64,000 nt of DNA from Thermotoga maritima MSB8. Its GTDB lineage: Bacteria > Thermotogota > Thermotogae > Thermotogales > Thermotogaceae. A program made the translations under genes and the position numbers. Under the pieces are notes generated by a model. The model was given only the letters and a program-made list of their open reading frames with translations, searched no databases and had not been told where the DNA came from. This document shows positions 30,101 through 31,977 of the stretch, one piece after another. The number at the start of each line of letters is the position of its first letter. Position 1 is the first letter of the stretch. Location: NCBI RefSeq assembly GCF_000008545.1, contig NC_000853.1, forward strand, positions 1,378,465 through 1,442,464, written 5' to 3'.

Positions 30101-30969
30101 TTTACTATGGCACGATGTTCGATCACAAGGTGAGATTTTCGATCGTTCGAATGAGAGAAGTGGTGGAAGAGGCTCGAAACAGGCACGCCCTTTCATACCT
30201 CGCCACGGTGGTACTCGGAAGAGCCCTCATCGGTGCGGCTCTTGTAACACCATGGCTCGCCGAAAAAGAAAGGTGGACGCTGGACATAGAGGGAAACGGG
30301 CCAATAAGGAGAGTCGTTGCACAGTCGACCAGCGAATTCACTGTCAGGGGATATGTGGCAAATCCCAAGGTGGAACTGCCCCTAAATGAAAAGGGAAAGT
30401 TCGATGTCGCCGGTGCTATCGGTCAGGGTGTTCTCAGAGTGGTAAGAGATCTGGGATTGAAAACTCCCTTTGTCTCTCAGGTGCCTCTGGTGAGCGGTGA
30501 GATCGCCGAAGACCTGGCTTATTATTTCGCGGTTTCTGAACAGATACCATCCGCTTTTTCCATCGGTGTTCTTGTGGACTCAGACGGTGTGAAGATCGCG
30601 GGAGGATTCGCCGTCCAAATCATCGATCGCACTCTTGAACAGGAGAAGGTGGAGATGATAGAGAAAAACATCAAAAACCTTCCCAGTATATCAAAACTTT
30701 TCCAGGAAGCAGAACCTCTGGACGTTCTGGAAAGAATATTCGGTGAGAAGGTAGGGTTCGTCGAAACAGCGGAAATAAAGTACAAATGCGATTGCAACAG
30801 GGAAAAAGCCAAAAACGCCCTTCTAGTCCTGGACAAAAAAGAATTGGAAGATATGCGAAAAGAAGGGAAGGGAGAAGTCGTCTGTAAGTGGTGTAACACA
30901 AGATACGTTTTCTCAGAGGAGGAATTAGAAGAACTCCTCAAGTTCAAGGTAGATGACTCTGGTTCCTGA
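30097..30969 (+). CDS. hslO: Redox-regulated chaperone Hsp33
   Basis: A 290-aa holdase chaperone activated by oxidation. The zinc centre is C231-x-C233 and C263-x2-C266, the family CxC...CxxC pattern. The [36 protein letters not shown] core is typical. The start ATG 30097 follows GAGAGGAT and overlaps the ispD stop. The last 45 nt overlap the convergent clamp-like gene. Confidence 0.96.
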
Positions 30970-31977
30970 AAAATTGGAGATCTTCAGGAACCTTTCTGTG
31001 ATCTCAAGAAATATCCTTTCGGTGTCCATCCGTGCGAGGGCACTTCTCAGTTTCTTCGAAGGAAACACCACAACAAAATCTCTTCCAGATTCCACGAAGA
31101 GTTCTGCAGTATAACTGAGATTCTTTCGCTTCACCTGAACCTTCAGGTTTTCTCCCCTTCTTGAGATCGTAGCGTAATCTCCTCTTGAAAGCACTGCGGC
31201 TTTTCTCACAAGCTTTGCGAGAACCTGTCTCCTTGCTTCTATTCGCTCTGCGGTCTTTTCTTCCAACAAAGACTTCAGTTTTTTGATCTCTTCTTCGCTC
31301 ACTTCGTCACCACAGACTTCCATCACGAAGTGAGGGTACTTCACCACGAGTTTTCCAGATTTCTCATAGAAGTCCAGAGTCTGAACATCCAGCCTTTGAA
31401 AAGCCTTGAAGATGTGCCTCACCGTGACGTACGGAATTTTCGTAGAAAAAGGCTTCTTTGGAATAGTAGAAATCTGTGCAAGGGTCATAATGCCCGCTGA
31501 CGCTCCAAACATCAAAACATCCTTTTCTTCAAAAAGAAGAATCAGGAATTCTCCTTCGTCAAGATTGGAGCTGGCAAAATTCAATGCTCCTTCGAATTCA
31601 CGCTTCGTAAGGGTGCAAAGAAATTCCTCTTCGCCATCTCCTGGAGGAATTTCTCCCGTTTTGCACCGAACGTCCAGAACTTCATTTCCCGCTTTCAGAA
31701 CGAGTCGTTCCTGAAGGACGGTGATTCGAACGTCACTGACCTTAACGTCACTCAAAAAATACTTCACCAGATCCAATGAAACGATCCTGCTGCCTTCGAA
31801 TCGAGGTATCTCCCCCAGAAATATCTCCACTTTAGCACAGTTGTCACTCGCACTCACCCAGAGTCCGTCTCTGTAAAAGAAACTGAGGAATCTCGCAGTT
31901 GGTTCGGTCGTTCCAACCAGTTTATCGAGCAGATAAACCCACTCTTTGAGTTCATGAGCATCAACGACCAGTTCCAC
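30925..31977 (-). CDS. Divergent DNA sliding-clamp (DnaN-like) paralogue, tentative
   Basis: A 350-aa protein not recognisable by strong motifs, but it falls into three repeats of about 115 aa whose strand-helix-strand pattern follows bacterial beta clamp. Repeat 1 has LSFFYRDGLWVSASDNCAKVEIFL then SLDLVKYFLSDV and ERLVLKAGNEVLDVR; repeat 2 has LILLFEEKDVLMFGASAGIMTLAQ; repeat 3 has VVFPSKKLRSALARMD then [21 protein letters not shown]. The usual C-terminal LIMPMRL-type pocket strand is changed, so partner binding may differ. The GTG start has GAGGTGA upstream. It is last in frr-uppS-cdsA-alaS. Thermotoga has a standard dnaN elsewhere, so this would be a second clamp-like protein. Assignment is inference. 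Confidence 0.55.
   Translation of the reverse strand: MELVVDAHELKEWVYLLDKLVGTTEPTARFLSFFYRDGLWVSASDNCAKVEIFLGEIPRFEGSRIVSLDLVKYFLSDVKVSDVRITVLQERLVLKAGNEVLDVRCKTGEIPPGDGEEEFLCTLTKREFEGALNFASSNLDEGEFLILLFEEKDVLMFGASAGIMTLAQISTIPKKPFSTKIPYVTVRHIFKAFQRLDVQTLDFYEKSGKLVVKYPHFVMEVCGDEVSEEEIKKLKSLLEEKTAERIEARRQVLAKLVRKAAVLSRGDYATISRRGENLKVQVKRKNLSYTAELFVESGRDFVVVFPSKKLRSALARMDTERIFLEITERFLKISNFSGTRVIYLELEEFF

What the first reader, a model, noticed from the sequence alone, without database searches (positions are those of the whole stretch)
30925..31977. A second, highly diverged DNA sliding-clamp-like protein at the end of the alaS operon
Three repeated units of about 115 aa follow the bacterial beta-clamp strand/helix order, with recognisable positions such as SLDLVKYFLSDV, VVFPSKKLRSALARMD and a final strand. 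Canonical C-terminal pocket residues are replaced (IYLELEEFF). Thermotoga has a normal dnaN elsewhere. A ring paralogue could be a repair clamp, a decoy, or a protein reusing the fold.
Basis: inference. Interest (0 to 1): 0.78.

Follow-up and report, generated by a model that had tools for sequence, protein, structure and literature searches.

The report
Phylum-wide second, pocketless DNA clamp
Nearly all bacteria of the Thermotogota phylum carry, besides their normal DNA sliding clamp, a second ring-clamp-like protein that has lost the usual docking pocket for replication partners and in two families sits right behind the gene for the replicative polymerase PolC; what it does is untested.

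Summary
The 350-aa product of window 30925-31977 (minus strand, 6 nt after alaS) is a true beta-clamp homologue. Its family profile hits the T. maritima clamp 1vpk full length (E 1e-7). Profile-profile against 25 Thermotogota DnaN gives E 6.6e-15. The AlphaFold model (pLDDT 88) matches 1vpk at Z 29.4 over 345 residues, and the threefold repeat is significant. It is a phylum-wide family, not a Thermotoga oddity: 98 of 103 Thermotogota genomes have it, with canonical dnaN at another locus in nearly all. It is inherited vertically and under purifying selection (dN/dS about 0.04-0.1). The canonical peptide pocket (DGHRL, FPDY, MPxR) and both DNA-contact loops are gone. Dimer-interface hydrophobics and a positive inner face are kept. 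A new invariant set (G22, E25, D45-G-C47, R187-H188, K191, C222, R316) has appeared. In 29 genomes of two families the gene directly follows polC (gaps -1 to 11 nt). Best explanation: an auxiliary clamp tied to PolC/replication, binding partners through a different site, probably the domain I/II junction. Ring formation, DNA encirclement and partners are inferred. No description of it was found in the open library searched.

The parts
30925..31977 (-). second beta-clamp-like protein ('clamp2'), 350 aa, GTG start, stop included
   Evidence: ORF; clamp homology by profile, HMM-HMM and predicted fold
31636..31977 (-). clamp domain I (aa 1-114)
   Evidence: aligns to canonical domain I, E 7.6e-9; DSSP of model
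31294..31635 (-). clamp domain II (aa 115-228), the most diverged domain
   Evidence: weak to canonical domain II alone, E 5.5e-4; fold in the model
30928..31260 (-). clamp domain III (aa 240-350)
   Evidence: aligns to canonical domain III, E 7.6e-9; PF02768 over aa 236-341 at E 0.15
31837..31845 (-). D45-N46-C47 turn (family consensus D-G-C), pseudo-symmetric to the D-G-H pocket turn of canonical domain II
   Evidence: D45 50/50, G46 42/50, C47 48/50; aligned to canonical A-S-D-G-F of domain II with posterior 0.99 to 0.54
31312..31314 (-). C222, at the end of the last strand of domain II
   Evidence: 48/50 Cys; the only two sequences without it also lack C47
31393..31431 (-). domain II helix alpha2 (aa 183-195, Y-V-T-V-R-H-I-F-K-A-F), carrying invariant R187 and K191 and near-invariant H188
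   Evidence: R187 50/50, H188 48/50, K191 50/50
31027..31059 (-). domain III helix alpha2 (aa 307-317, SKKLRSALARM), family consensus K-L-R-S-A-L-x-R-M
   Evidence: R316 48/50, R311 40/50
31984..31990 (-). ribosome-binding-site-like GAGGTGA overlapping the alaS stop
   Evidence: read from sequence
31984..34575 (-). alaS (alanyl-tRNA synthetase), upstream gene, 6-nt gap
30082..30969 (+). hslO-like gene whose 3' end overlaps the 3' end of clamp2 convergently by 45 nt
   Evidence: ORF coordinates

Best explanation
It is an auxiliary bacterial sliding clamp: an ancient, fast-evolving paralogue of DnaN, present since the ancestor of Thermotogota, that keeps the three-domain clamp fold, probably still closes into a DNA-encircling ring (as a homodimer or with DnaN), but no longer offers the standard clamp-binding-motif pocket. 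It most likely works with the PolC replicase, binding it or a PolC-associated factor through a different, newly conserved surface at the domain I/II junction (D45-G-C47 with C222, pseudo-symmetric to the H175/M362 gate of the normal pocket). Shown here: homology, fold, phylum-wide retention, loss of the pocket, new conserved residues, polC operon in two families. Inferred: ring formation, DNA binding, the new docking site, the link to PolC as a physical one.
For: Homology: profile to 1vpk E 1e-7; HMM-HMM E 6.6e-15; direct P0001 hits to canonical dnaN in three genomes, E 1.2e-5, 1.8e-4, 8.2e-4 (places identified). Fold: pLDDT 87.7, pTM 0.84, Foldseek E 6.7e-24, Z 29.4; a second model of a polC-linked member gives pLDDT 88.3 and Z 28.3 to 1vpk. 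Spread: 94/103 genomes with P0001 alone, four more with the profile. Vertical tree: most families with several members form single clades. Selection: dN/dS 0.04-0.1. polC linkage: 16/16 determinable f9 and 13 f10 genomes have clamp2 directly behind polC on the same strand (positions), gaps -1 to 11 nt in the 10 measured, PolC identified by domains. Dimer core kept hydrophobic: I78 position F/L/I/V 50/50, F106 position L/M/I 50/50, I272/L273 region 42/50 hydrophobic at V262. Inner helices and loops net +7.5 on average against +5.7 in DnaN. D45-G46-C47 aligns to the D-G-F/H pocket turn; C47 and C222 are lost together.
Against: Both loops that carry the E. coli DNA contacts R24 and Q149 (from memory) are shortened and decharged. 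The polC linkage is absent in Thermotogaceae (here the neighbour is alaS), f2, f3, f8 and in genus g32 of f10. PolC itself keeps an ordinary QxxLF clamp motif at its C-terminus, so it does not need a new clamp for tethering. Without the pocket the delta subunit cannot open this ring in the usual way. The two families with polC linkage may be related, so this may be one event.
Confidence: 0.42

Rival explanations
1. A regulator or antagonist of DnaN: it forms a mixed ring with DnaN (domain I/III interfaces kept) that has only one pocket, or caps one DnaN protomer, and so limits or switches partner access.
For: Dimer-core positions stay hydrophobic; pocket lost; one clamp2 and usually one dnaN per genome.
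Against: No direct evidence of a mixed ring; the charged contacts of the interface were not compared; a pure antagonist would not need a set of invariant inner-helix and domain-I residues.
Confidence: 0.2
2. A repair or damage clamp of the 9-1-1 kind, loaded separately and recruiting repair enzymes.
For: Diverged ring paralogue with its own conserved surface; hyperthermophiles have a heavy damage load (general knowledge).
Against: No linkage to repair genes in any sampled family; neighbours are polC, alaS, tsaD/clpX, ddl, ychF.
Confidence: 0.13
3. A protein that reuses the clamp fold as a PolC assembly scaffold or for another job, without encircling DNA.
For: DNA-contact loops R24 and Q149 shortened; two invariant cysteines and R187/H188/K191 could be a ligand or metal site.
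Against: Positive inner helices kept and even stronger in domain III; dimer-core positions kept.
Confidence: 0.2
4. A spurious or decaying duplicate of dnaN without function.
For: Faster evolution than dnaN (74% against 88% identity to G091).
Against: Intact in 98/103 genomes, dN/dS 0.04-0.1, invariant residues across 11 families.
Confidence: 0.01

Closest known systems
DnaN, DNA polymerase III beta subunit (TIGR00663; PF00712/PF02767/PF02768), e.g. T. maritima TM0262 (PDB 1vpk)
   Same: three-domain fold, collinear full-length homology, dimer-core hydrophobic positions, positive inner helices
   Different: about 12-15% identity; no DGHRL/FPDY/MPxR pocket; R24 and Q149 loops shortened; new invariants E25, C47, R187, H188, C222; below family cut-offs; separate locus
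Bacillus anthracis DnaN-2 (PMC3290774, citing Yang and Miller 2008)
   Same: a second beta clamp beside the normal one
   Different: about 40% similar to DnaN-1 according to that review and able to replicate DNA; not phylum-wide; the present family is far more diverged
GriR / MypR, second DnaN for griselimycin/mycoplanecin self-resistance (PMC10817943)
   Same: extra DnaN copy in the genome
   Different: lies in an antibiotic gene cluster and serves drug resistance; no such cluster here
Eukaryotic 9-1-1 checkpoint clamp (PMC9690074)
   Same: a ring-clamp paralogue with insignificant sequence similarity to the main clamp and its own job
   Different: eukaryotic heterotrimer related to PCNA; function of the present one unknown

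Membership tests
beta-clamp superfamily (bacterial, three-domain) | significant full-length sequence homology to known beta clamps | tested here: met
   1vpk E 1e-7 over profile 1-328; HMM-HMM E 6.6e-15
beta-clamp superfamily (bacterial, three-domain) | three-fold repeat of the clamp domain and clamp fold | tested here: met
   repeat E 3.5e-5 to 2.3e-7; Z 29.4 to 1vpk
DnaN proper (TIGR00663 / Pfam DNA_pol3_beta) | score above the curated cut-offs | tested here: not met
   P0001: PF02768 12.3 bits against 27, no NCBIfam hit; in the family only a few members reach weak E-values, best 1.1e-5 and 9.8e-6
DnaN proper | clamp-binding-motif pocket (E. coli G174-H175-R176-L177, P242, M362-P363, R365) | tested here: not met
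   canonical 30/30 at D172, G173, F174, R175, P241, M361, P362, R364 (T. maritima numbers); clamp2 0/50 R, 0/50 M, P in 16/50 at P362
DnaN proper | hydrophobic dimer core (E. coli I78, F106, I272, L273; PMC11139829) | tested here: inconclusive
   positions 74 and 101 hydrophobic in 50/50; 262 in 42/50; 263 mixed; dimer itself not tested
DnaN proper | DNA-contact loops (R24 and Q149 loops) | tested here: not met
   K23-K24 and M151-G156 of T. maritima DnaN have no counterpart; the Q149 part of the alignment has low posterior
DnaN proper | positive inner helices | tested here: met
   mean +7.5 against +5.7
DnaN proper | ring dimer that encircles DNA and is loaded by the DnaX complex | not testable with these tools
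   needs biochemistry
9-1-1-like repair clamp | function in damage response with a dedicated loader | not testable with these tools
   no repair-gene linkage seen
antibiotic self-resistance DnaN (GriR/MypR type) | located in a biosynthetic gene cluster | tested here: not met
   neighbours are housekeeping genes

The most novel reading that the evidence does not exclude
Thermotogota replicate DNA with two different clamps: the ordinary one and a dedicated PolC-linked clamp whose partner-docking site has moved from the domain II/III junction to the domain I/II junction, with a cysteine pair in place of the usual His/Met gate. It would be the first bacterial clamp with its own docking code.
Probability: 0.22. 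Interest if true: 0.9.

Novelty: new variant of a known kind. Interest (0 to 1): 0.74.

Why it matters
Bacterial replication is taught with one clamp per cell; the second copies known so far are either close copies or drug-resistance copies. A conserved, deeply diverged clamp in a whole early-branching, hyperthermophile-rich phylum, without the universal docking pocket and coupled to polC in some lineages, would mean an unrecognised component of a bacterial replication or repair machine. It is directly testable: Thermotoga proteins are easy to purify and crystallise, and the solved clamp 1vpk from this organism gives a ready comparison.

Tried and rejected
Single-protein searches (Pfam, NCBIfam, PDB by phmmer) do not reveal the clamp: best clamp hit E 0.15, PDB hits only Cas12i chance matches at 0.22. 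Scan of genome contigs with P0001 alone found nothing, with a 12-sequence profile 8 loci, all Thermotogota; that scan found only a small part of the known members, so absence outside the phylum is not shown. Considered and rejected: pseudogene (selection); recent duplication (12-15% identity, phylum-wide tree); horizontally moved phage clamp (no phage or plasmid hits, vertical tree); antibiotic self-resistance copy (no gene cluster). The first idea that inner-surface conservation alone shows DNA binding was weakened by the loss of both DNA-contact loops. The pseudo-symmetric match of C222 to the M362/P363 position could not be shown by hhalign (unaligned); it rests on strand positions in the model only. 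Literature searches for a second DnaN in Thermotogae, for TM1395 and for diverged clamp paralogues gave nothing relevant.

Full report
What was checked. The ORF at 30925-31977 is on the minus strand, 350 aa with a GTG start, 6 nt downstream of alaS and preceded by GAGGTGA. Its 3' end overlaps the 3' end of the convergent hslO-like gene by 45 nt. The window lies in a single-contig genome of 1,860,725 bases; that is the size I remember for T. maritima MSB8, in which case the gene would be TM1395 (memory, not tested).

Homology. The single sequence is almost invisible: Pfam's best clamp hit is PF02768 at E 0.15, NCBIfam gives none. Relatives were collected with whole-genome searches: 94 of 103 Thermotogota genomes have a match at E 1e-3 or better. 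In three of these genomes the same query also reached the canonical dnaN at E 1.2e-5, 1.8e-4 and 8.2e-4 (positions identified as dnaN through). A profile of 50 relatives (A1) finds 1vpk, the T. maritima clamp, as best PDB sequence, E 1e-7 over the full length, and the 13 hits at E below 0.05 are all beta clamps. hhalign of A1 against 25 canonical Thermotogota DnaN gives probability 98.4 and E 6.6e-15 over 343 columns. The E-values of hhalign are for a single comparison. Individual members reach PF00712 at 1.1e-5 and TIGR00663 at 9.8e-6.

Fold and repeat. AlphaFold2 with nine sequences gives pLDDT 87.7, pTM 0.84 and three repeats of b-a-bbbb-a-bbb. Foldseek against PDB returns beta clamps only in the top 50, E 6.7e-24, TM 0.83; VIA-align gives Z 29.4, rmsd 3.7, 345 residues for 1vpk. 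A second member, from a polC operon, gives pLDDT 88.3 and Z 28.3 to 1vpk. The three domain profiles match each other at E 3.5e-5, 7.6e-7 and 2.3e-7.

Spread and inheritance. With the A1 profile the gene is also found in G097, G098, G099 and as a contig-edge fragment in G032, so 98 of 103 genomes; only G087, G088, G065, G003 and G004 lack it. Canonical dnaN lies at another locus in nearly all; in G001 (79% complete), G074 (60%), G002 (93%) and G055 canonical dnaN was not found above the cut-off, probably assembly gaps. The tree of 58 proteins recovers f2, f3, f8, f9, f10 and f11 each as one clade and all but one f1 protein together; the exception, L095, is a very long branch. This is vertical descent from an ancestor of the phylum. 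dN/dS against close relatives is 0.04-0.07 (0.02-0.04 for dnaN), up to 0.11 against more distant ones. Identity falls faster than for dnaN (74 against 88% to G091, 44 against 79% to G090).

What changed. Mapped by hhalign (T. maritima DnaN numbers), the residues of the clamp-binding-motif pocket that are 30/30 in canonical DnaN (D172, G173, F174, R175, P241, M361, P362, R364) are not kept: no R at 175 and no M at 361 in 50 sequences, P362 in 16. The loop of E. coli R24 loses two basic residues and has E25 (49/50) where DnaN has K/R27; the loop of E. coli Q149 (DEFMRNLNG) is cut (low alignment posterior there). That R24 and Q149 touch DNA in the E. coli complex is from memory. Kept: the dimer core positions (E. 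coli I78, F106, I272, L273 according to PMC11139829) are F/L/I/V, L/M/I, and mostly hydrophobic; inner helices and loops sum to +7.5 on average against +5.7. New: G22 50/50, E25 49/50, D45 50/50, C47 48/50, E141 49/50, R187 50/50, H188 48/50, K191 50/50, C222 48/50, R316 48/50. D45-G46-C47 of domain I aligns with the D-G-F/H pocket turn of canonical domain II, and C222 lies at the end of the last strand of domain II, where by strand order the counterpart of M362/P363 would be. H175 and M362 are the two residues singled out in the normal pocket. The only two sequences without C47 also lack C222 (one lineage). I infer a docking site moved to the domain I/II junction. According to PMC11139829 clamp-loader subunits also touch the normal clamp between domains I and II.

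Neighbourhood. The upstream gene differs by family: alaS in f1, a D-Ala ligase gene in f2, tsaD behind clpX in part of f3, a small unknown gene behind ychF in f8. In f9 and most of f10 it is polC, identified by its PHP, exonuclease, polymerase and finger domains. From the positions the two genes are adjacent on one strand in 16 of 16 determinable f9 genomes and 13 f10 genomes; seven f10 genomes of genus g32 have them apart, G032 and G055 cannot be judged. Gaps are -1 to 11 nt in the ten measured, and PolC in these operons still ends in a normal motif (QITLF, QMSLF and the like). PolC occurs in 100 of 103 genomes, so co-occurrence adds nothing; the operon is the evidence.

Interpretation. The clamp identity is practically certain (about 0.98). 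That it acts as a ring on DNA is likely (about 0.6). That its job is with PolC/replication is my best choice (about 0.42 for the whole explanation), with a DnaN regulator, a scaffold and a repair clamp as rivals.

Known or new. Second DnaN copies are known in Bacillus (PMC3290774) and in antibiotic producers (PMC10817943), but these are recognisable DnaN. I found no paper in the open library that describes this family; subscription papers were not searchable, so novelty in print is likely but not proven.

Noticed in passing
window 30925-30969: The 3' ends of clamp2 (minus) and the hslO-like gene (plus) overlap convergently by 45 nt, so the last 14 codons of clamp2, where the canonical pocket tail would be, are also constrained by hslO.
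   Followed up: no
L092:4946-5537 (+), genome G059: A 197-aa ORF right behind clamp2 is a partial second copy covering aa 174-344 (part of domain II and domain III); not found in the other sampled genomes of that family.
   Followed up: partly
G011:C55:31053-31460, G084:C23:20517-20876, G037:C1:806411 and 1818708: Additional clamp genes recognised by PF02768 beside dnaN and clamp2; could be mobile-element or duplicated canonical clamps.
   Followed up: no
f10 genomes G036-G038, G047-G052, G054, G055: A second, shorter PolC-like protein (about 970 aa; match begins near profile position 376-381) accompanies the normal PolC; PMC3919608 mentions one additional exonuclease-less PolC in Thermotogae.
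   Followed up: no
G002 (93% complete): No canonical dnaN found above the cut-off although clamp2 is present; probably an assembly gap, but worth checking.
   Followed up: no
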